The notes under the pieces were generated by a model. It was not told the origin of the DNA. It was given only the letters and a program-made list of their open reading frames with translations, and made no database searches. 64,000 bases of DNA, from positions 14,420,876 to 14,484,875 of the forward strand of contig CP099854.1 of NCBI GenBank assembly GCA_030062745.1, read 5' to 3'. Of this stretch, positions 24,291 through 55,039 are shown in pieces. Positions within the stretch are counted from its first letter, which is position 1, and each line of letters starts with the position of its first letter. The position numbers and the translations under genes were made by a program. This DNA is from Capitulum mitella (Eukaryota; Arthropoda; Thecostraca; Pollicipedomorpha; Pollicipedidae).

Positions 24291-24515
24291 CGTTCTTCTT
24301 CGCGGCGGATCGACACGACCACGTCGTCTATCAGAACCGTTTATTCTGGCTCCCCCTCCACGCTGCTGGGGAGGGCCACGCTGCGGGTCGATAACCCCTC
24401 GATGCCGCGAACGCCCAGAAGCACCACCACCGTTCCCGTTGCGATTCAAGAATCGTCCTTTTAACAAATCACCACAGTAAGGTTCGTATTTTCTTCGTAT
24501 AAAGAAAGTGTTCAA
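24228..24515 (-). CDS. Gly/Arg-rich ORF linking NS1-like A and recombinase
   Basis: A frame overlaps the end of NS1-like copy A and runs on with an RGG/GG-rich, strongly basic stretch (GGGASGRSRHRG, QQRGGGARI, RRRGR) to MSDYEYDDGDGAP. There it meets a GTAACC splice donor; otherwise it stops at 24228. It could be the remnant C-terminal tail of the NS1-like protein after loss of its helicase, or a 5' extension of the recombinase gene. Nothing in the sequence decides which. Confidence 0.35.
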   Translation of the reverse strand: MNTFFIRRKYEPYCGDLLKGRFLNRNGNGGGASGRSRHRGVIDPQRGPPQQRGGGARINGSDRRRGRVDPPRRRTMSDYEYDDGDGAPVTADCVH

Positions 24516-26067
24516 GCCAGATGACAGTTTCTGATGGGCCCTGCGTCAGATCTACCATGCCATGGTACTCATGGAAGGTTTTCCAGAACGGCTTTGTCCG
24601 TAACTTCTTTATGCGCTGTGCGTTCTCGAAGTTGATTATTGTCCGAACTCTATCTTTGAACTGGGGCGTCAGGCCGTACAACATCGTGAATTCTTCTTCG
24701 TCTATGCTGCTCATAAACTGGCCCGTGGTGCGACACTGGTACTTTCGTACTAGGTTCGTTATCACACTCACCTCGTTGGCAGCATTTTGGCGCTTACTTG
24801 CGATCGCCGCTTGGTTCTCTGCTCGTCTCTTTACTCTCGATGCTTGGGCTCCGCTCACCGCCGTGTCGACTTCGTCATGAGGGCTGCAGCTGGCTCCTGA
24901 GAACAGTGCTTGAGGTACAGCACTATCAGTTTGGTCGCAGATGAGGGGGGCAAGGATGCGTTGGAGATGATCTAGCACAGCCTTCATCCACTTTACAGAT
25001 GAGTGGCGGAGACTAGAAAACATGGACGTTTGGAATCCGAAACGACAAAGATAAACCAGCCATCGCGTCGCAGATCTAATACTTTGGAAACTGATGGTTG
25101 CTGCGGCTCGCTGCTCATCTGTAAAGTGGAGGGCTGTGCAGATGGAGTCAATGAATCGTTTCCTGTTGGCATGGGGCTCCGGGAAAGTGAAGTGTGTATG
25201 TCCCTGGTTTCGGCTTCCAACTCGGCTGCTATCCTGTTGATCGCGTCCAGGTCCTCCCTCGTCAGTGGCCCCTGGGCCAACGCTAGGTCCAGGGTGCCAG
25301 GTGACGAGGGAGTTGAACTTGTTAGTGCAGGTCCGTGCCGCCTCTCTGCAGTCCCCTGGGACAACGAATGTGGCGATGGCTGGTTGAGGTCCGTCTGGGT
25401 GCCGGTCGTTGTAGTGGAGGATGAGGTCCTCCGCCGTTTGGATGTTTCCGGGCGGTCGGGTTCCTCCATGGGATGGCGGTCGCTGTCCACAGGGGACTGA
25501 AGAGGCGTCGTCGGTGGTGTCGAGCTCCCGTCTTGAAGCGGCAGTCGAAGTTCCAGCTGAATGAGAGGTGCTTCGTTGAACAGGTCTCGTATGGCGTATG
25601 ATGGGGGGGGCTTGGTGGAGACGGCGGCGTGCAGCAAAGTTCCCTAATAATAGGGTCTTGATATCCTCCTTCCTCTGAGGGATGTATCTCTCGATGCTGA
25701 GTGACCCCGAGTACCACTCCACTTCCATCCCTTTGATGATCGTATCGGGCATCGTCGTCAGTACTCTGGCTAACTCCTTGCGCCACGCAAAGTTTGTCAC
25801 ATTGTTCACGCTGAAGGCGTATGAGGTGCTTCTCGATCTCGGGAATTTGTGCATCTGTAGAGAGGGAATCTTCCTCGTCAGAAGCTCGGGAGTACCGTGT
25901 ATCAAAGTACTGCGAGCAAAGGATCGGAGCTCCCGAAGGAGGCTGGGGTGACCATGTTGAATCACTTCGAACCGATAGGTTCTCTGGTGCAGAATGTGAC
26001 CCCCGCTGGGGTGATACACTAGGTCGTCCCGATGTACTGGGTATGATGTGAGCTGAGTCCGAATCAT
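24469..26067 (-). pseudogene. Parvovirus NS1-like protein, copy A (no helicase)
   Basis: A 532-codon frame starts at ATG 26067. It contains an HUH-type endonuclease signature, GHTHFTF at about residues 289-295, and a candidate nucleophile Tyr in RWLVYLC at about residue 339. The region after about 430 (NLVRKY, EEEFTMLYGLTP, FENAQRIKKLR, PFWKTFHEYHGM) is shared with copy B. Copy B continues into a superfamily-3 helicase, but copy A diverges right after IWLEH and stops. HUH nuclease plus SF3 helicase is the domain pair of parvovirus NS1/Rep. No stop interrupts the frame. Just upstream lies an intron (donor CAA|GTAAGT at 26161/26160, acceptor TTACAG at 26069) and a hairpin. It is likely an endogenous parvovirus-like copy that has lost its ATPase. 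Confidence 0.78.
24993..25637 (-). CDS. Overlapping accessory frame 2, copy A
   Basis: This third frame overlaps NS1-like A for 214 codons. It has a detectable counterpart in copy B (27616-28263), with shared blocks such as LRLPL, SKRR.TSS, LDLALA/VDLALA, EDHQAI/EDLDAI, SRSP and a common ending FLVSAT.L. Conservation of an overlapping frame between two diverged copies argues that it encodes protein. It is Ser/Thr/Pro-rich with a basic KRRRTSS patch that could be a nuclear signal. No known family. Confidence 0.5.
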   Translation of the reverse strand: MLHAAVSTKPPPSYAIRDLFNEAPLIQLELRLPLQDGSSTPPTTPLQSPVDSDRHPMEEPDRPETSKRRRTSSSTTTTGTQTDLNQPSPHSLSQGTAERRHGPALTSSTPSSPGTLDLALAQGPLTREDLDAINRIAAELEAETRDIHTSLSRSPMPTGNDSLTPSAQPSTLQMSSEPQQPSVSKVLDLRRDGWFIFVVSDSKRPCFLVSATHL

Positions 26068-26068
26068 C
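25322..26068 (-). CDS. Overlapping accessory frame 1, copy A
   Basis: If the short exon ATGCAA (26166-26161) is spliced at TTACAG, translation enters this frame (QDDSDSAHIIPS...), overlapping the NS1-like frame by about 750 bases. It is Ser/Pro/His-rich with no known domain. Densoviruses commonly overlap an NS2-type frame with NS1; the arrangement is similar, but function is unknown. Confidence 0.4.
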   Translation of the reverse strand, partial: DDSDSAHIIPSTSGRPSVSPQRGSHSAPENLSVRSDSTWSPQPPSGAPILCSQYFDTRYSRASDEEDSLSTDAQIPEIEKHLIRLQREQCDKLCVAQGVSQSTDDDARYDHQRDGSGVVLGVTQHREIHPSEEGGYQDPIIRELCCTPPSPPSPPHHTPYETCSTKHLSFSWNFDCRFKTGARHHRRRLFSPLWTATAIPWRNPTARKHPNGGGPHPPLQRPAPRRTSTSHRHIRCPRGLQRGGTDLH

Positions 26069-26166
26069 CTGTAAGTAATACAAATAAGTATTAGAAATTA
26101 ATATTACTTATTTAAATAAACAATAATATTATGTTTCTATTAGATACTTGTATTACTTACTTGCAT

Positions 26167-26390
26167 GACGTCTGCAGGTGCTGAGTTGTCTACACTGCGA
26201 AGAACAGAACACAACTGAAGTAGTCGACGATGACCACTACCCTTATTGGTTCATAGCACTGTGTGTCGACCAATCAGGAGTCATGAGGAATGAAGAGCAA
26301 TGAAGGATTCGCGGTCATCACTTCATAGAAAAGTCCTGGCGTTTTCAGCACTCATCATCACTTCATAACAAAGTAAATCACGGTAATCCG
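26167..26390 (-). promoter_or_regulatory. Promoter region of NS1-like copy A
   Basis: Between the hairpin and ATG 26166, the minus strand shows CCAAT-type boxes in both orientations (ACCAATAAG and TGATTGGTC). It has an arthropod initiator TCAGT at 26218-26214, about 50 bases before the ATG. A direct repeat TCATCACTTCATA (+ strand, near 26317 and 26353) lies next to the hairpin. No TATA box is seen. A TCAGT-type start close to a terminal hairpin is typical of densovirus promoters. Confidence 0.5.
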
Positions 26391-26633
26391 CCATCAACAC
26401 TCATCATAGCTCAAAAGTGCCAGCTCATCATCATGAGTGGCCCCCTTATGCCCCGAGGCGGTGGGGGGGGCGGGGCAAGCACCGGCCAGCTTTTGGGTGA
26501 GTCGTACGACAGTCCATGTACATGGCACCCAAAAGCTGGCCGGTGCTTGCCCCGCCCCCCCACCGCCTCGGGGCATAAGGGGGCCACTCATGATGATGAG
26601 CTGGCACTTTTGAGCTATGATGAGTGTTGATGG
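26391..26633. repeat. T-shaped terminal hairpin (parvovirus-like ITR)
   Basis: Arms 26391-26499 and 26526-26633 are inverted complements over about 108 bases, with a one-base length difference in a G/C run as the main mismatch. The 26-base centre holds two further perfect palindromes, GTCGTACGAC (26501-26510) and CCATGTACATGG (26514-26525). The whole can fold into a long stem topped by two short arms, the shape of the AAV-type terminal repeat. The stem is GC-rich in the middle. Its outer part carries ATGATGAG/CTCATCAT words that recur next to the promoter and might be initiator-protein sites. It lies just upstream of NS1-like A, where a viral left terminus would be. Confidence 0.88.
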
Positions 26634-26634
26634 C

Positions 26635-26670
26635 TAAAAGTAAAAGTAAAAGTAAAAGTAAAAGTAAAAG
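26635..26670. repeat. (TAAAAG)6 microsatellite at copy B/hairpin junction
   Basis: Six perfect TAAAAG units separate the hairpin from the truncated 3' end of NS1-like copy B. Translated in the helicase frame they give a TFTF run, so the real protein ends or was cut just before it. The tract may mark the recombination junction. Confidence 0.95.
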
Positions 26671-28190
26671 TTCTCGTCCTGCTCTGGAGAGCATTTCGGT
26701 CCGCTTCCTGTAAAAAGTTGCCAAGCGTAGTATTGGTTGTGCCGAAGATCGGCACTCGTTCAAGGAGCTCTCCTGCACTTTCATATTTAACGGCAACATG
26801 CATCGGCTCTCCGCCTAAAAGTTTCTTGAAGTCGTCCTTATTCACATCACTCACCGTCAGCTCTTCGAGAAGAGCCAACGGTGAGTGAAGGAGTTGGGAC
26901 ATATAAAACGGTGAATTATTATTCACAGCGGACATTCTTGTGACATCATGCAGGTCTAAAATACTTGAGGTAACCAAAGTCTTTCCAGTGGTAGTCGGTC
27001 CAAATAAAAGCAGGGTATTGGTCTTCACCAACTTCTTGTCAGCTATTACTTCCGCCCACGCTAAAAACTCCGCTATGTCCACTCTGTTTTCATTAAAAAG
27101 GTGTTCAAGCCAAATGGCGTTTTCTGTCTTGCCCTGTGTCAGATCAGCCATCCCGTAAAATTCATGGTAGGTTTCCCAAAATGGCTTCTTCCTCAGGCGT
27201 TTCAGTCTCTGACTATTTTCAAAATGTATGATGGTCCGGACGCGGTCTTTAAAATTGGGCGTGAGTGTATACAGTTGTGTAAATTCCTCTTCCGTTATCG
27301 ATGACATAAAACTTCCAGTACTTCTACAATCATACTTTCTCACAAGAGACGTGATAAAACTGACCTCTCCATGAGCCTGTTGCTTCTTACTGGTATGCGA
27401 AGCCTGCTGCTCCGCACGCCTCTTGTTTCTTGTAGTTTCAGCGGTGCTGAGACTGCCGTCGACCTGGTCATTCGGGATGCATGAACCACCTGTGAATAAA
27501 ACTCTCTGCCCGTGTTGGTTGTCATCGTCTAAAAACCTGTCCACTTCGTCTATGTCACGATCGAGTATGGGTCCAAGGATTTCCTGTAACTTCTCCAAGT
27601 ATGCCTTGACCCATTTTATAGTCGCGTGGCGGACACAAGGAAAAGTTGACTGTCCGAACCCGAAACGGCATAGGTAAACCAGCCACCGTCCCGCAGCCCT
27701 AACACTCTGCCAGGTGAGGGCTGCTGTCGCTCGTTCCTGCTCGGTGAGACCGAGCGCGTTACTGATGGCGTCGATGAGTCGACGTCTGTTTGAGTGGGGC
27801 TCCGGGACGGTGAAATGTGTGTGTCCGCTTCTTGTTCCAGGTCCGCTAAAATCCGGTCTATCGCCTGGTGGTCCTCCTTGGTCAGTACCGCCGGCGCCAA
27901 AGCAAGGTCCACTATGGTAGGTGAGCAGAGCGTTGAATTTCTGTCTTCCGTCTGCTGCTCTTTGTCTAAAGTCGCCGGGTAAGACGAATGTCGCGATCGG
28001 GGGTCCGTTGACATCGTTTGGGTTTCTTTCGTCATAGATCCTGATGATGTCTTCCGCCGTTTGGACGACGTTGTGCTGTCTTGGGTGATGCTGCTCCGGT
28101 GTCCGCTGTCCGCATGGGACGCTGCTGGTGTCGGAGGCTGAGGCGACTGCGGCTGGTCGAGCGGGAGACGGATTACGATCTCTGGTGGAG
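26671..28190 (-). pseudogene. Parvovirus NS1-like protein, copy B (with SF3 helicase)
   Basis: One minus-strand frame is open from about 28190 to the microsatellite, but the first in-frame start-like codon is a TTG at 27598, so the 5' start is lost. The upstream part keeps the HUH motif (GHTHFTV) and RWLVYLC. Downstream, counted from 27598, is a complete superfamily-3 helicase core: Walker A GPTTTGKT (residues 200-207), Walker B LALLEEL (241-247), B' GGEPMHVAVKY (262-272) and motif C PIFGTTN (283-289). It resembles the parvoviral NS1 ATPase. Compared with copy A it lacks roughly 400 bases of N-terminal coding sequence and the promoter. The C-terminus is cut by the TAAAAG repeat. An unbroken frame over about 500 codons suggests recent insertion or selection. 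Confidence 0.8.
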
Positions 28191-28263
28191 TAGGTGACCT
28201 CCGATGGGATGATGGACCGGTGAAGTCGGTCTGACTGGATACGTGGTGTGGTTGTTCATCATT
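27616..28263 (-). CDS. Overlapping accessory frame, copy B
   Basis: This frame opens at an acceptor (TCACTTACAG|AATGAT, exon from 28263) homologous to that of copy A, and overlaps the NS1-like frame for about 215 codons. It is Ser/Thr/Pro-rich with SKRRKTSS. It matches the third frame of copy A along most of its length and shares its C-terminal FLVSAT.L ending. No known domain. Confidence 0.5.
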   Translation of the reverse strand, partial: NDEQPHHVSSQTDFTGPSSHRRSPTPPEIVIRLPLDQPQSPQPPTPAASHADSGHRSSITQDSTTSSKRRKTSSGSMTKETQTMSTDPRSRHSSYPATLDKEQQTEDRNSTLCSPTIVDLALAPAVLTKEDHQAIDRILADLEQEADTHISPSRSPTQTDVDSSTPSVTRSVSPSRNERQQPSPGRVLGLRDGGWFTYAVSGSDSQLFLVSATRL

Positions 28264-30679: not shown

Positions 30680-32518
30680 CATCGCTTCGTGGACCTTAGC
30701 TTGCATCTCTCCAGATGACAGAGGCGCGGCGGCGACCGTCCAGCGGTGTGATCATATGTCCCACGCTGTCGTAGCCCAGTCTGCCCGGGATACGCACCGG
30801 AAGCGGCCAAGCACGTGCCCTCTGACTGGCTGGTGCATTTAGATAGGCGGCGGCGATCGCTCGACGCACGTTGAGAAGCATCAGCTGTTTCTGCGGGTGA
30901 CGGCTGCTTTGTGCAGGATATAGCTGTTCACTACAGCCATATCTAGTGCCCCGGTGATTAGGCACCAGTACCATTTTTGCCGTGCATGGAGACCTCGCGC
31001 ACTCCCAGAAGCTGGTCGCGAAGATCGACTCTACCCATGCCAGAGTTGTAGATCTTCAGATCGCCGAGTCTTGGATGAAGGCGGGCCAGCCGCGTCGTAG
31101 TCTGTCATGACTTTGACGACCTTGTTGTGCCACCTGACCAGCAGCACCTCGGAGGTGTTGTGGAAGCGCTGCCCATGCGTGCCGCGCTTTGTTTTGGTCA
31201 TGTCTTTTGCTGAGGCCACCAGACAGTTCTGGCCACAGGCAGGCCACCATCCAGGCAGTTCTGTCTCAGCGTTCCGCTGGCACGGATGCGACGCCGCTTG
31301 AGCTCCGGGAGCAGGGCTCGGGAGACGAAAAAGCTGTTTAGCAAGCCGTGCCCTTTGGGACCAGATACAGCACGCGCCATATCTACCACCTCTCCAGACA
31401 CAAATGGCTGGTCCCGAAGCTCAGGGCACCGCTCCTTTCCACAGTAGAGATCGAATACGTGGCAGTAGCCGTCACTGTGACGAACCGTCGCCAGTTTACT
31501 TCCGAGGCGGATGTGCTTGCCATGGATGAACGGCTTCAGGTTGTTGTGCCCGTAGTATCGGGCGATCATCTCGTCCACTGACAGCCTGTGTTGGAAGATG
31601 CCGTACTTTTCGAATGACTGGCTGATGATATCCAGTAGCGGACGGACCGTGAACCCCCGATCGTTGTTGTCTGCTTCGTGTTGTCCTGTGCGTGCAGACT
31701 CGACTTTCTTCTCGTGCACTGGGAACTGGCCGTTGCGTTGTGGACGATGCAGTGCTTCGAGTCGTCGTCCTCAGACCAGTGTATCCTCGGCAGAGGGTTG
31801 CAACTTGAATAGAGGAGAATTCCAAGGAACGCTTTTAGCTCGAGGTCGGCAGAGAAAAGAGGAGGTCGTTTTGATGTCCTCGGTGTGCCAAAGCGCTCCC
31901 ACCTGTATTAGGTGGAATATTTCCGGAGTTCTCGGAAGTCTCACAGCCGTGTTGGCCCGCAGCTCAGCGGCGACCATGTTGCGGTTTTCTTGTGGCGTTT
32001 TGGACATCTGCTATGTATCTACATCTGCTACTTTGGATGTTCTGCTCCTGCGTGTCACGCCACGCAGGCACGCTTCTCTCTGTGCGGCGTTTTTTTTTTT
32101 GCGTAGTCTCTGTCGTGTTCCCTCTCGGAGCTTCACGTTCGGTAGCCTCTGGGGTCAGACTCTTTATAACGTTGGCGGTCCAGCCCTCGCAGATTAAGCT
32201 GCCATTTTGGACGGGAATATGGCTTCTCAGGAAGCAGTAACAGTAACTAAGTGCAACAGTAACAGTAACTAAGTGTAACAGTAACTAACATAACTAAGTG
32301 CCTTCATCGTAACCGGGAGCGTCGTTGACTTCAACAGTGCCAGTGACCTCGTGGTTTCCTTCGTATGCGTCGCTGCCGTCCGGGGGAATGTCCACCAGCT
32401 GAGCGGCACCGTCGCCTGCGTCCACGTCGTTCATCGCCATTGTCACAGCTTCCTGCACGGTCAGGCATCGCACCCTCGGCATGATATCAGCTGTACGCAA
32501 TTTTACAACTCTCCACAC
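30680..32518 (-). pseudogene. piggyBac transposase relic
   Basis: The order of pieces on the minus strand matches a piggyBac (DDE_Tnp_1_7) transposase. An acidic N-terminus with PRVRCLTVQEAVTMA (32518-32294) is followed by disrupted sequence. The catalytic core (31719-31198) contains RPLLDIISQSF, LSVDEMIARYYG (first Asp, about residue 49 of this piece), HGKHIRLGSKL and SDGYCHVFDLYCGK. Where the second Asp is expected (DNFFTS in the family) it has LNSFFVS. A later piece includes GQRF...VRWHNKVVKVMT and GRVDLRDQ (third Asp). Frames shift several times and an AACAGTAACTAAGTG repeat interrupts it at 32236-32300. It is inactive. It belongs to the superfamily whose TTAA-flanked MITEs are scattered through the window. 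Confidence 0.82.
32236..32300 (+). repeat. AACAGTAACTAAGTG short tandem repeat
   Basis: Three to four imperfect copies of a unit containing CAGTAACTAAGTG lie inside the piggyBac relic, separating its acidic N-terminal piece from the rest. Confidence 0.75.
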
Positions 32519-45600: not shown

Positions 45601-48600
45601 GAGGCTTAGCAGCATATTAAAGCGGGGCGGGGCTGGGACCACGCCCCCTGGAGGTGGTGGGGCCTCTAGCCGAAGGCCCCACTACTTTTTGGCAGTTTAA
45701 GGCGCCCGAAGGGGCGCCCAAAATCAAATAAAATGGGCCTCCGAAACATCAAAACAGGACCTCAAGCCTAAAAAGGGGCCCGAAATCTAAAAATAGGGTC
45801 CCCTAAGCCGCGAAGAGGGCTCATCTGAGCTAGAATGGCCCCTTGGTTTGGTCTGGCCCCTTCTTGGACGAAATTCTGGGTACGCCACTGTCCCGAGGCA
45901 CCAAAATAGGACCTGAGGCCTAAAAAGGGCCCCTGCATAGAAAGAGGACCCTTAGCCACGAAGAGGGCCGCCTTGGCTGGAGGGGCCTCCTTGACCTCAT
46001 TTGGCCCCTTCCTAGACGAGACCCTGGGTACGCCAGTGCAGGGTCCCCAGTGTATCTGGGGGTCCATTGGATGTCAGCGACCTCTGTGGCTGGTGTTAAA
46101 TGTTCATGGGAGCCCCAGGCTTTGTATACATCCCCTGGATACACCAAGGTCCCCTGGCCGTTTCCCGAATACCCTATGCGTGTTGAGGACCTTTGGCATT
46201 GACCAAGAGCACTGGGTGTATCTGGGGTATTTGAAAGCGGTTAGAGCCCCTGACCAGGCCTAGAGATCCCATGTATTTGGAATTTTTGAATTTCTGAATT
46301 TCAGGAGCCCTGAACTGAATTTCAGGAGTCCCAGTGGCTCCTGAAATTCACTTTTGCTCCTTATTTGGAGCTCATTGCGGTCACTGACTTTCAGAGGATG
46401 GGCATACCAAGGGCCCCCAGTCCTGATCAGGTCCAAAGACTCCAGGTATGTACAGGGTGTTCTGGAGAGCGCCAAGGGTTGTGTGTTTGGCTGCCTATTG
46501 GAAAGACGGTAGTTCCTACGGCTGCGTAAGGTCCATTGAGGTCCCTGACTTTCGAATAGTCAGCAAGTGCACCAAGGGCCCATGGCCTTCTCCAATGGAA
46601 TCTGGATCTAGAACCTGGAAATTTGGAACACCTGGAAATCTTCAAACTTGATCAGGGGCCCCCTGTGTATTTGGTGCCCACTGGAAGTCAGGCGCTTATG
46701 TGGCTGTTAGATGCCCATTGGGGCAACTGAATTTCAAAGGGCCCCCAGACAGACCCGAGGGTCCCTGACCCTCTTCGGAATGCCCCCTGCATATCTAGAT
46801 GGTCTTTGGTCTTGAACAGGGGCCCTCAGTGTGTTTGGGGTCCTGTGAAAGTCGGAGCTTCCGGCTGGCCCCCTGTGGCTGCTATGAAGCCGCGTTGGGT
46901 TAGGTTAGGTTGGTCAGGTTGATTAGATCATGTTAGGTTAGGTTAGGTTAGGTTACGTTAGGTTAGGTTTGGTTAGGTAAGGTTGTAGTTAGATTCCGTA
47001 ACTTTCAAGGGACTCTGATCACATTAAGCCCCTGATCACTGTTCAGGTCCCCAAAGATTATGTATGTATGTACATGATTTTTGTTTGGGGGAAGGGGCCT
47101 TTTGGTCGCAATGCTAAAGTCTGTATTTATTTAATACGTACGAAAACACATTTGGTGTTCGATTTTGGGGGCCCCTCCGCAAGCTTGGAGCCCCACGCAG
47201 TATTTGGCGACAAAATCATATGTTTGCCCCTTTTCGGAGGGGGCAGCTGCCCCTCCTGCCCCCTTCCCCTATCTGCCGCCTTTGCACACCGGTCATCCAG
47301 AATGCCAAACGGACTGCTGCATAAAACCACCAAAGATCACACTATAAAAAAATGTTGCTCATTTGCACGAAACTGCTGTGTAAGCTGCACGTGCACTATG
47401 TTGCAAGAAAATACAGTATACTATGTTGATAACATTAGGACGTGACCTAAGATAATATAGTTTCCAATTTTTGTTACTTCTTGCACAGCTGACGTAAGAA
47501 AAGGTACTGGAGAGGTTTCATGACGCCATGTTTATTTGGTTTGTAGCAATGTAAGAAATGCACGGGGGTTAAGAAGCGCCGTTATTGCAGTGAGATGCTT
47601 CGCCAGTTACAGCGATTAAGTGAAGCTGACGATTTAAAATGGCATTTGTTTAGAGGCATCATGAAAATAAGTTGATGAAAATTTTCGTGAATGTGATGGA
47701 AATATTTTCTTCGTTACTCGCCATGTAGCACCTAAAAGTACGAATTTTGGAGCTCTGAATCATCTCCCCCATTTAAATCTGCTGTTCATTTTCCTTTTTT
47801 TCGTGATAACTGCTCAGTAGCTAAAGGGAATTATGCCATTCGTGGTGATACACCCTCACAGGAAGCATATAAGGTCGGTTTTAGTCTCTAACGCGTTGTT
47901 ATGCACGGATCAGACCTGGCTGCTGGTCAACTTCTGCTGCGTGCTGGGAACTTTCGACTCGTGCTACCTGCTGTGGCTGCGGGCGGCCGGCTCCCACCTG
48001 GAGTCAGTCCGCCGCCTGCTGGATCCCGAACGAGTCCTGCCGCAGCGGCGGCGGCAGGACCCGGCTGCCGGTCCTGCCGGCCCTGCCGGCTGGCGGCGAC
48101 AGGCGACCCGCAGCGGCTCGGTCCCGGCCGTGTCTACCGCCGACAGAGCTGACCGACCGCCAGCCGCCGCGCCAGAAACGCCGCAGACGGTGGTGGAATT
48201 CCCTATGACTGCGGCAGAATCGCCCTTCGCCTGGCCGCCATTGCCAGAGGACGCGGGAGGGACGCGGCAGAAAACGGCAGAGTTGTCTCAGGAGAAGACA
48301 GTGCCTCCACAGACAAAAGCAACGTTGATTTCCTGCGCGCCAGAGTTGTTCCAGGGCACGTCAGGATCGTCTCAGGGCGCCATCGGACCGGCCTCCGCAT
48401 TGGCCACTGTGGAGAGCTACTATGGTGACGTCACACGGTGCGTGGCGTCATTTCGTCATAGTCGTATCTGGCAACACCATGTCGTGTTGTGGCGTAGAGC
48501 ACTAAGCGCCATGCTTGAGAACGGTGCCTGGAGATGTCCATGGCATCTGTGTGTTGTAATGTGGAGACTGAAATAGAGAATATTATGTAATGTACAACAC

Positions 48601-52429: not shown

Positions 52430-55039
52430 TCAGATAAAAAACAATTGGTATCAGCAGTCTTACGCCTATCTCTGTTTCATCGCGAGGCTACTGAGGAACG
52501 GCCGAAGTAAGACAGACGGGATTGTTGTGCGTCGTGACGACAGCAAAAAAGAACGAACGTTCTTTTACGAAATACAACGGAGGATCGTAACTGATTAGTT
52601 GGTACACCGAAACACACGTGGTGGATGCTGTGCGACGGATTTTTCTTAACGCCTGATCATGGACAGTCCTGTAAAATTCCGGCATGCATCTTGAGTATAT
52701 ATTTGCAAACATTATATCAGTATATTTTTCACCACGAGTGCCTTTTCGTTTCTAGTGGCGATACTTGGTCGCTAATTTTTTGGGACGTCCTTAATCCACC
52801 CTAGCAAAAGTCCTAGCAACAGAGTTTCCATCAGTTCTGGTGCTCGATATCTGGCCAGCAATAATGCAGGAGCGCGCGCTCGGACTATTGCACTAGCATG
52901 ACCTTCCTGTTGGCCTAGATTTATTATATCATTACTCTGAAGTTTCGCGAACGGATTTGGGGCCCAGAGTTCTCGCAAGAAGTTCTTCGCCGCATGGGTT
53001 CTGATCACAAATATCACACTATTAAAACATTGGGATAACATTTACGGGAAACAAAAAGTAACTGATGCTATTGTGTTATTCTGTTCTAGTGAGGGATTTA
53101 GGGTTCTGCTAGCGATGCCAAATAATAGGAGAAAATATCTCAGGTTTTGCCGCGTATTATTTTCCCTGCGATGAGTGAACTGTCCGTACGGCAAATAAAT
53201 AGAAGAAAAGGTGAATAATATTTCTCTGTGACGTACAATGATTGCACTATGCGAAACCCGCCTCGCGCATACAGTCGCATGGTGTCATGTCACGCCCTGT
53301 AATGCCCGTTAACCCGATCTTTATCCTCAGAAACCCTTCATTCCAGCATCACACTAGTGCCCCTACAACCTGGCTCCTTAATCCCATGACTTCGAAATGA
53401 TTAGCACAGGTCGAAGGAGATTTATCCACCGCCACCTTACTTGCAAACAAATGATGCATGCTTTCTCTACAAGGTAGATTAGCGTCACTCTGGATAAAGT
53501 GCAGGCATATACAAAATCACATTGTTTGAGTTGACGCGAACATTTCCTACCAGTCACTGTTGTTTGATGCAGATGGGATGCGATTTATTTCGCCTCTTGC
53601 ACAATGTCAGAATGAGAAATCTATTTTGCCATTTCAAAAGCGATAATATGTAGCACATGTTGAAAATGCATGCAGTTGGCTAAAGGTAAGTTTCTGCCCG
53701 ACGAAATCGCGAACAATCCTTCGTGTAATTGCCACCAATGTAAAGAATGTATCACCCTGTTTCTAACCATACTTTCCACTACTTGATTGTCTAAAAAATA
53801 ACGACAAAATCGTAACGATAACGTACTACTCAGTAATACCGCGCTGCAATCGACTGGCGGAGAACAACATTATTCCGCGGCGGAAAATGTAGTGCCGCCA
53901 AGGTTAAGGTTATTGACATCAAGGATGTGTAGACCCTGCATGCATCTTCAGGCGATTAAGGACGTCATATATATGAAAATTCTATTTTGTTGCCACAAAC
54001 TGAATTTGGAGAAATTGCTGAATTATTACGCCGTTATATTATTGTATTAGATAATTGTTGGGATATCTGATATCAGTATTATTACATTACGACATTTAAT
54101 ATTCGTTAGATTACTTTAGGTTGCTAGGTTGGGTTGTGCTGGGCTAGGTAAGATAAGATTAGGTTAGGTTAGGCTAGGTTAGGCTAGGTTACTATGTTAG
54201 GTTAGGGTAAATTTTTATTTATTGCTTTATTTCACTGCCTAATATTTTTCAGTTTTGTTCCATGATCCTTTTCAGATATTTTATTTCACTGCTTTTTATT
54301 TTTATGTTGTATTTTTTAAATTGCAACTTCACTTTCCACCCTTGTAATATTTTTACTTTTTATTATTATTGTTGTTTGTTATCATTATTACTACTATTTT
54401 ATTATTATGGTTATGATGATGATGATTATTATTATTATACAACGACTAACTTTTTTATTTTAAAAATAATTTATATCGCATTAGATATTTCTCCAACCTT
54501 TTTTATTACTCTTGATTGGACCTTGAGTCCGACCGACGACCAATCAGCGTCGAGATCTCACGTAAATAAACTATTTAACGCAGAATCGTCAAAAATCCCT
54601 ACGCGAGCGTCTGGCGGTTAGCATACTAGTGACGACGCAATCTGTTTCCGGGGAAGTAATGTGTGTTTCAGGTTTTTCCGGCTGAAATCGTAAGTAGTAC
54701 TTATCAGTATTGCGTTTGAAGCGCCATGCAACCACTACTACGATTATTTTCCCTCGAAGTAAGCGCTCGGTCAAAATCTTACTGTTGACCGTGGCGAAAC
54801 TTAAAAACGAGAGAGGCAAATACAGTTGCTTATTCCAGGCGATAAAGTATAGTGGAGACTATGTGTCGTAGTGAACTATGGGGCTGGGTCCTAGCAGCAA
54901 CCAAATCTATAAGTCAATGTAAAAAACATCTGATCCAAACGTCCCAGCAGCGTTACAAACGCGTCGCGAAGTACATTTATTGCACATAGAAATAAAAGGT
55001 ATTTAGCCTAAATTTGCACGAATCGGGGCAACTGCCTTT
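52430..55039. other. AT-rich intergenic interval
   Basis: No gene is supportable. A TTAGG-like tract lies at 54105-54212 and a low-complexity ATT/ATG stretch at about 54355-54440. Short ORFs have no domain. Confidence 0.4.
54105..54212 (+). repeat. Interstitial TTAGG telomere-like tract, second
   Basis: GGTTA/GGCTA units in the same orientation as the tract at 46.9 kb, more degenerate, in AT-rich surroundings. Confidence 0.8.

What the first reader, a model, noticed from the sequence alone, without database searches (positions are those of the whole stretch)
26391..26633. T-shaped, parvovirus-like terminal hairpin in a genome
Seen: ~108-bp near-perfect inverted arms around a centre made of two separate small palindromes (GTCGTACGAC and CCATGTACATGG). 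Known: adeno-associated and related parvoviruses end in exactly this A-B-B'-C-C'-A' fold, but endogenous copies usually lose their termini. Here it sits at the 5' side of an NS1-like promoter. Its preservation implies a recent insertion or continued use as a replication origin or mobility end.
Basis: partly seen in the sequence, partly recalled or inferred. Interest (0 to 1): 0.9.

Follow-up and report, generated by a model that had tools for sequence, protein, structure and literature searches.

The report
Parvovirus-like hairpin telomere in animal genome
This is the intact T-shaped end of a parvovirus-like DNA virus built into an animal chromosome, one of many related copies that still show how such viruses copy their ends.

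Summary
Window 26390-26634 is a 245-nt palindrome (109 arm pairs, no substitution, one one-base slip in a G run) with two small palindromes at its tip. It lies at the 5' end of an NS1-like fragment and its outer end meets a diverged second NS1 fragment. The host assembly (477 Mb, 16 contigs, probably a barnacle) gave 11 places similar to it, all 11 within 300 nt of an NS1 or capsid (VP) match. Four kinds of evidence point to a replication telomere: (i) lineages with different arms keep self-complementary arms and covarying tips; (ii) the tip occurs in both orientations, 6 and 5 of 11 scored copies; (iii) a tail-to-tail dimer joint is preserved; (iv) a conserved D/arm border, with four outer ends stopping at that same base. 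NS1 and VP evolved under purifying selection. Best explanation: repeated integration of a capsid-bearing, rolling-hairpin parvovirus lineage. T-shaped parvovirus ends are known; new here are the lineage, the number of preserved ends, and hairpin ends lying beside resident NS1 copies.

The parts
26390..26634 (.). T-shaped terminal hairpin (A-B-B'-C-C'-A'), 245 nt; outer viral terminus at 26634, inner border at 26390
26501..26510 (.). tip palindrome B, GTCGTACGAC (GTTGTACAAC at loci L020 and L021)
26514..26525 (.). tip palindrome C, CCATGTACATGG (CCACGTACGTGG at locus L020)
26286..26389 (.). D-like segment, 104 nt, found beside hairpins at both NS and VP ends; with the hairpin a terminal repeat of about 349 nt
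   Evidence: (97% identical at C13:13.09-13.10 Mb, 92% at 13.14 Mb, 87-88% at 21.67 Mb)
26382..26397 (+). D/arm border GGTAATCC|GCCATCAA, inferred terminal-resolution (nick) site
   Evidence: border motif; nicking not tested
26286..26634 (.). TCRTCA repeats, candidate NS1-binding sites: 9 on both strands over the whole repeat (each arm counted), 3 in one arm plus tip (shuffle mean 0.12, 0 of 500 as high), 3 in D (8 of 500 as high)
   Evidence: in five other arms 2-4 repeats, 1-20 of 500 shuffles as high; binding inferred
26069..26160 (-). inferred 92-nt mini-intron with complementary ends (GTAAGTAATA...TATTACTTACAG), upstream of the NS frames
   Evidence: sequence; palindrome; conserved in other copies; splicing not tested
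24472..26097 (-). copy A open frame, 542 aa; NS1-like part 24487-25509, broken off before the helicase core; its first 165 aa lie in another frame than the rest in ten other copies, in the same frame in L018
25322..26107 (-). overlapping open frame of 261 aa in another phase, possible small NS protein
   Evidence: function inferred
26618..28255 (-). copy B NS1-like open frame, 546 aa, SF3 helicase (Parvo_NS1 E=1.5e-12); homology ends about residues 525-533; no terminal repeat of its own seen
26635..26671 (.). (TAAAAG)6 filler between the hairpin's outer end and copy B

Best explanation
The palindrome is the 5' (NS-end) telomere of an endogenous parvovirus-like genome, copy A, joined end-first beside a fragment, copy B, of a related virus. 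Before integration the virus copied its ends by rolling-hairpin replication: the folded T primes synthesis, the NS1 nickase is inferred to cut at the conserved GGTAATCC|GCCATC border, and refolding copies one arm from the other and inverts the tip. The sequences show arms changing together, both tip orientations, a dimer joint and outer ends stopping at one base. The nick, the NS1-binding repeats, the order of the two insertions and end joining into the chromosome are inferred.
For: Fold and uniqueness. NS1: Parvo_NS1 E=1.5e-12 in copy B; Rep40/68 and E1 helicases in the PDB. 11 of 11 genome places similar to the hairpin lie within 300 nt of NS1 or VP matches. Same D segment at NS and VP ends. 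Tip alignment of 9 copies (two of them from locus L020): 97.2% of cells paired, 6 of 12 pairs with changes on both sides (shuffled mean 2.8), covariation 0.407 against 0.162 shuffled, 0 of 500 as high. Own arms 93.7-100% identical over aligned positions in 12 copies, while arms of different lineages match far less. Against the window copy, five same-lineage copies show 14 concerted cells at 7 pair positions and 7 discordant cells. Orientation 6 B-first, 5 C-first of 11 scored. Joint at L007:1458-1705 with D on both sides, flanks 100% alike over 176 nt and 99.5% over 647 nt. VP dN/dS 0.019-0.150 in 43 of 45 pairs, 2 undefined; NS 0.038-0.297 in 16 of 21, 5 undefined.
Against: The HUH nuclease half of NS1 is seen only as HxH and YLxR motifs invariant in four proteins (motif meaning recalled); no structure could be predicted. 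VP-to-capsid similarity is weak (E=3.4e-4, below Pfam's cut-off, in 1 of 3 VPs; E=0.062). No relative was found in the viral contig collection. Copy A is incomplete, so its other end cannot be examined. In one search one of five measures, further pair types, is not above the shuffles (6 against 6.7; 412 of 500 as high), 3 of 108 cells are unpaired, and the structure was derived from these sequences. 7 discordant arm cells exist; with gaps counted, own-arm identity falls to 87% in L022 and 89% in L009:6792. Many dS values exceed 1 and are rough. Part of the arm identity could reflect recent age or gene conversion rather than viral copying.
Confidence: 0.93

Rival explanations
1. The family is now a mobile element of the host: NS1 and VP copies still move within the germ line, using the hairpins as transposition ends, rather than being remains of repeated infections.
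For: 81 NS1 and 44 VP matches, the NS1 ones in 24 clusters on 12 of 16 contigs; 63 of 81 and 32 of 44 without internal stops, though many are short pieces; near-identical arms.
Against: VP is under strong purifying selection, which asks for capsid function; quite different NS1 lineages sit side by side, one (L005/L013) 67-77% identical to database proteins P0003 and P0004 but 43% to copy B (the organisms of P0003 and P0004 are not shown); many fetched copies are truncated or rearranged.
Confidence: 0.08
2. A foldback or MITE-type DNA transposon that happens to lie beside NS1 relics.
For: A long inverted repeat by itself would fit.
Against: No target-site duplication seen by eye at the window copy; 11 of 11 places lie within 300 nt of NS/VP; the D segment is shared between NS and VP ends; tip covariation and both orientations.
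Confidence: 0.01
3. Assembly artefact (false palindrome or chimeric join).
For: Long palindromes are prone to misassembly (recalled); no reads were available.
Against: Related hairpins with different arms and different flanks on C8, C13, C14 and C16; arms carry locus-specific concerted changes.
Confidence: 0.01

Closest known systems
Penaeus monodon metallodensovirus (Metalloincertoparvovirus)
   Same: Crustacean parvovirus; 416-nt ITR of which 161 nt fold as a T-shaped hairpin; SF3 helicase in NS1 (PMC11357303, passages read).
   Different: Here about 349-nt repeats with a 245-nt hairpin. Its NS sequence could not be compared; its capsid entry (6WH3, named in PMC10267136 passages) was not among the PDB hits of P0006 or of the VP profile.
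Penstylhamaparvovirus (IHHNV/PstDV; equivalence of the two names recalled)
   Same: Only capsid family matched by the VP, weakly (PF16530 E=3.4e-4; 3n7x E=0.062); short VP; endogenous copies known in shrimp.
   Different: The review reports direct terminal repeats instead of hairpins, and endogenous copies lacking hairpins (PMC11357303, passages).
Acheta domesticus segmented densovirus
   Same: T-shaped termini of 208 and 220 nt (PMC10267136, passages).
   Different: Bipartite, and its termini do not form ITRs; here NS1 and VP lie in line and the ends share a repeat. One NS-less unit (C13:13097436-13099705) looks like a deletion: 543 nt upstream of its VP are 100% identical to the neighbour's NS-VP spacer.
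Bemisia tabaci ambidensovirus and its endogenous copy
   Same: Endogenous NS fragment keeping a near-complete 41-nt flip-flop palindrome (PMC12297876, passages).
   Different: I-shaped hairpins from 107-nt terminal regions, ambisense genome; here whole T hairpins in several copies and both orientations.
AAV (Dependoparvovirus)
   Same: A-B-B'-C-C'-A'-D layout, flip-flop, SF3-type helicase in Rep (AAV details recalled; helicase match).
   Different: The match to Rep is confined to the helicase; the terminal repeats were not aligned with AAV's.

Membership tests
Parvoviridae | Terminal palindromic hairpins serving as replication ends | tested here: met
   (structure and copying signature; function in a cell not tested)
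Parvoviridae | NS1 with SF3 helicase | tested here: met
   PF01057 E=1.5e-12, 47.5 bits against cut-off 20; Rep40, Rep68 and NS1 structures
Parvoviridae | NS1 with HUH nuclease domain | tested here: inconclusive
   HxH and YLxR invariant in 4 of 4 aligned proteins; no Pfam nuclease match, no structure
Parvoviridae | Jelly-roll capsid protein | tested here: inconclusive
   1 of 3 VP proteins matches PF16530 at 20.3 bits, cut-off 25; PDB 3n7x E=0.062
Parvoviridae | Linear ssDNA genome of about 4-6 kb in a virion | not testable with these tools
   only chromosomal copies seen; a relative's NS1 and VP-like stretch lie in one frame on a 5.8-kb contig
Hamaparvovirinae (Penstylhamaparvovirus) | IHHNV-type capsid without PLA2 domain | tested here: inconclusive
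   weak capsid match only; no phospholipase family hit in 3 VP stretches scanned, whose N-termini may be incomplete
Penstylhamaparvovirus | Direct terminal repeats instead of hairpins (as stated in PMC11357303) | tested here: not met
   hairpin ends here
Dependoparvovirus (AAV) | NS1/Rep groups with AAV Rep | not tested
   no tree built; similarity to Rep limited to the helicase

The most novel reading that the evidence does not exclude
Resident viral telomeres and NS1 relics act as landing pads: the nickase of an incoming virus cuts at or near an old copy, and the new genome joins there by its hairpin end in the prevailing direction, so that clusters grow by serial self-targeted integration. 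The one-strand clusters (13 of 13 NS1 matches on + at C14:22.6 Mb, 6 of 6 on + at C8:16.26 Mb; of 12 clusters with three or more matches, 7 one-strand and 5 mixed) might then serve as antiviral small-RNA sources.
Probability: 0.25. Interest if true: 0.88.

Novelty: new variant of a known kind. Interest (0 to 1): 0.7.

Why it matters
Here whole telomeres, both tip orientations and a dimer joint sit in one genome, together with NS1 and capsid-like genes of a lineage with few database relatives. That makes rolling-hairpin replication readable from chromosomal sequence, offers arm-pair clocks for dating integrations, and poses a testable question: why do viral ends lie next to other viral genes?

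Tried and rejected
Considered and dropped. (1) A separate VP segment as in AdSDV: the NS-less unit's upstream 543 nt equal the neighbour's NS-VP spacer, so a deletion is simpler. (2) A transposon inside the right arm of the L007 joint: the 809-nt insert with a 12-nt duplication is 99.9% identical over 800 nt to the same virus's VP-spacer region, inverted, so a viral rearrangement. (3) Relatives in IMG/VR: none. (4) Rfam: no match at gathering thresholds. (5) Orientation rows left out before counting, 5 of 16: one duplicate (L014:233 is L005:1750), two rows of the L007 joint, L022 (D-like sequence on both sides by my reading), L019:8883 (tip only 37 nt from the border). (6) In one search the inner arm of the L014 row is misaligned, so its 8 discordant cells are not evidence about its own arms (87 of 87 aligned positions matched, 1 gap column). 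(7) High entries between lineages (up to 100%) come from free end gaps and short overlaps; I ignored them, which is a judgement. (8) Not every fetched NS/VP stretch has a whole hairpin: one search scanned L005-L016 and the window, one search scanned L017-L024; L008, L011 and L012 hold only pieces, and L013, L018 and L019 showed no whole one. (9) A script stopped with an error after its useful output; its palindrome scan was redone.

Full report
THE OBJECT. Window 26390-26634 is a 245-nt palindrome. 109 scored arm pairs have no substitution and one single-base slip in a G/C run. At the tip lie two separate perfect palindromes, GTCGTACGAC and CCATGTACATGG, three bases apart. As DNA, window 26381-26643 folds at -161.5 kcal/mol, z = -30 against 200 shuffles. 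The minimum-energy fold is a long stem with two small hairpins, that is, a T; the centroid leaves the tip open. No other inverted repeat with a loop under 60 nt in the window comes near it.

THE SURROUNDINGS. Two NS1-like fragments lie on the minus strand. Copy A (open frame 24472-26097) starts about 290 nt inside the hairpin and breaks off before the helicase core. Copy B (26618-28255) carries the SF3 helicase (PF01057, E=1.5e-12; Rep40/68 and papillomavirus E1 in the PDB). Copies A and B share 55% amino-acid identity over 352 residues, so I take them for different viruses. The hairpin's outer end, 26634, meets 37 nt of (TAAAAG)6 and then copy B, whose homology ends about residues 525-533. 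Copy A's first 165 residues lie in another frame than the rest in ten other copies (L005, L007, L012, L014, L019 twice, L021, L022 twice, L024) but in the same frame in L018; whether copy A's long frame is a fusion or natural is open. A transposase fragment at 31201-31770 (PF13843; piggyBac type recalled) fits a chromosomal setting.

THE HOST. Not named by the tools. The only named NS1 relative among the hits is from the barnacle Amphibalanus amphitrite, and the assembly has 16 contigs and 477 Mb. Capitulum mitella has 16 chromosomes, assembled at 463 Mb (PMC8416341, passages) or 512 Mb (PMC11331182, passages; its legend shows 16 chromosomes also for a second barnacle). A barnacle is likely; the species is not shown. 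The A. amphitrite protein has no close copy here (best long match 58%).

GENOME-WIDE COPIES. The hairpin as DNA query finds 11 places on C13, C14 and C16. All 11 lie within 300 nt of an NS1 match or VP match. NS1: 81 matches, 63 without internal stops, in 24 clusters on 12 contigs. VP: 44 matches, 32 without. Many matches are short pieces, one broken copy can give several, and the searches score best candidates only. Further hairpins with other arm sequences were then seen in fetched NS/VP loci: L014:5213-5412, L017:2223-2395 (damaged), L020:5302-5584 (two in tandem), L021:6564-6722, L022:2170-2424, L023:1567-1751, L024:6324-6493. The fetched stretches were my choice; most of the 24 clusters were not read.

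WHY IT IS A COPIED TELOMERE. First, covariation: in 9 aligned tips, 6 of 12 pairs change on both sides, 13 cells, with 97.2% of cells paired; none of 500 shuffles reaches the covariation score, and sliding the pairing destroys it. The tip palindromes themselves covary (GTCGTACGAC/GTTGTACAAC, CCATGTACATGG/CCACGTACGTGG). Against this: 3 of 108 cells are unpaired, the number of further pair types is not above the shuffles (412 of 500 as high), two rows come from one locus, and the structure was derived from these sequences, so the slide control leans its way. Second, concerted arms: 12 hairpins have 93.7-100% own-arm identity over aligned positions although their arms differ between lineages (L022 and L009:6792 fall to 87% and 89% with gaps counted). 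Against the window copy, five same-lineage copies show 14 concerted cells at 7 pair positions and 7 discordant cells, four of these in L009:6792, mostly beside a deletion. Third, flip-flop: reading inward from the D segment, six copies meet GTCGTACGAC first (window, C14:22619233, C13:13097677, C13:13141575, L024:8334, L024:2489) and five meet CATGTACATG first (C13:13094637, C13:21670478, L017:2224, L020:5305, L024:6293); 5 of 16 rows were set aside for stated reasons. In C13:13094637 and L017 the scan recognised only the CATG palindrome. By my reading of the gene maps both orientations occur at NS ends and at VP ends. Fourth, L007:1458-1705 has D on both sides and VP pointing at it from both sides; the flanks are inverted copies, 100% over 176 nt and 99.5% over 647 nt, with an 809-nt inverted piece of the same virus inserted in one flank. 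This is the layout of a tail-to-tail replicative dimer. Fifth, four outer ends stop at the same base as the inner D/arm border (window 26634, L009:7017, L012:806, L005:1500), two are 3-4 nt short (L009:1333, L006:9436), and five copies are cut inside the hairpin (L006:6508, L011:6333, L012:680, L008:8341, L012:1679).

CAPSID AND SELECTION. At C13 VP lies downstream of NS1 in the same sense, its end about 42 nt from D. One of three VPs scanned matches the IHHNV capsid family at E=3.4e-4, under the curated cut-off; the VP profile's only PDB match is 3n7x, the PstDV capsid, E=0.062 (name). VP fragments of 10 loci give dN/dS 0.019-0.150 in 43 of 45 pairs (2 undefined); 7 NS fragments give 0.038-0.297 in 16 of 21 (5 undefined); many dS values exceed 1 and are rough. 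So the differences between copies arose largely while the proteins worked, which I read as before integration. A relative has NS1 and a VP-like stretch in one 970-aa frame on a 5.8-kb contig; one VP relative of 339 aa was found, unnamed.

AGE. No substitution in 109 arm pairs gives an upper 95% limit near 2.7% divergence; with a recalled, uncertain rate of 3e-9 per site and year this is under about 5 million years. Gene conversion between arms would make the true age greater.

INTEGRATION. Eleven hairpin ends lie within about 60 nt of an NS1 fragment: window (copy B), L006:9436, L009:1333, L009:6792, L011:6333, L012:680, L008:8341, L014:5412, L021:6722, L020:5584, L024:6493. Others do not: L006:6508, L012:1679, L005:1500 (about 120 nt from an NS1 end) and L023:1567 (about 90 nt). 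I read these off the tables by eye, in loci fetched because they hold NS, VP or hairpin, so no probability is given. The pattern may reflect concatemers integrated whole, as at C13:13.094-13.101 Mb, where pieces are 99.5-100% identical, or later viruses joining old copies, as in the window where A and B differ at 45% of residues. NS1-guided landing on resident origins is my boldest reading, not shown.

PRIOR WORK. T-shaped ends are known in PmMDV and AdSDV. [quoted passage not shown] Searches for barnacle endogenous parvoviruses, for crustacean endogenous elements with NS1 and hairpin, for T-shaped densovirus ends and for endogenous parvovirus with inverted terminal repeat and hairpin showed no listing that, by title and start of abstract, describes this one; I saw listings, and passages of seven papers. 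Subscription papers and preprints are not covered.

Noticed in passing
26069-26160: AT-rich imperfect palindrome just upstream of the NS frames that reads as a 92-nt intron with complementary splice ends; 77 nt of this region are 94-96% identical in L018, L022 and L024.
   Followed up: partly
26847-26888: Small palindrome inside the NS1 helicase coding region, also present at the same place in other copies; perhaps only codon choice.
   Followed up: no
C14:22.617-22.684 Mb, C8:16.258-16.279 Mb: NS1 matches in some clusters lie on one strand (13 of 13 and 6 of 6; of 12 clusters with three or more matches, 7 one-strand, 5 mixed), as in small-RNA clusters or directional insertion; matches in a cluster are not independent.
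   Followed up: partly
31201-31770: Transposase fragment (PF13843, E=6.6e-13), piggyBac type by recall.
   Followed up: no
P0005 (Amphibalanus amphitrite protein): Named NS-1 protein whose tail carries a Pif1 2B domain and a repeated stretch, perhaps a chimeric gene model or fusion; the tail matches other places in this genome.
   Followed up: no
L010:5969-6710 (C13:13155969-13156710): Another long imperfect palindrome of about 740 nt, 82% alike, near the C13 cluster; nature unknown.
   Followed up: no
46894-46984 and 54142-54206: Interstitial GTTAG/TTAGG-type repeats resembling arthropod telomere repeats (telomere identity recalled).
   Followed up: no
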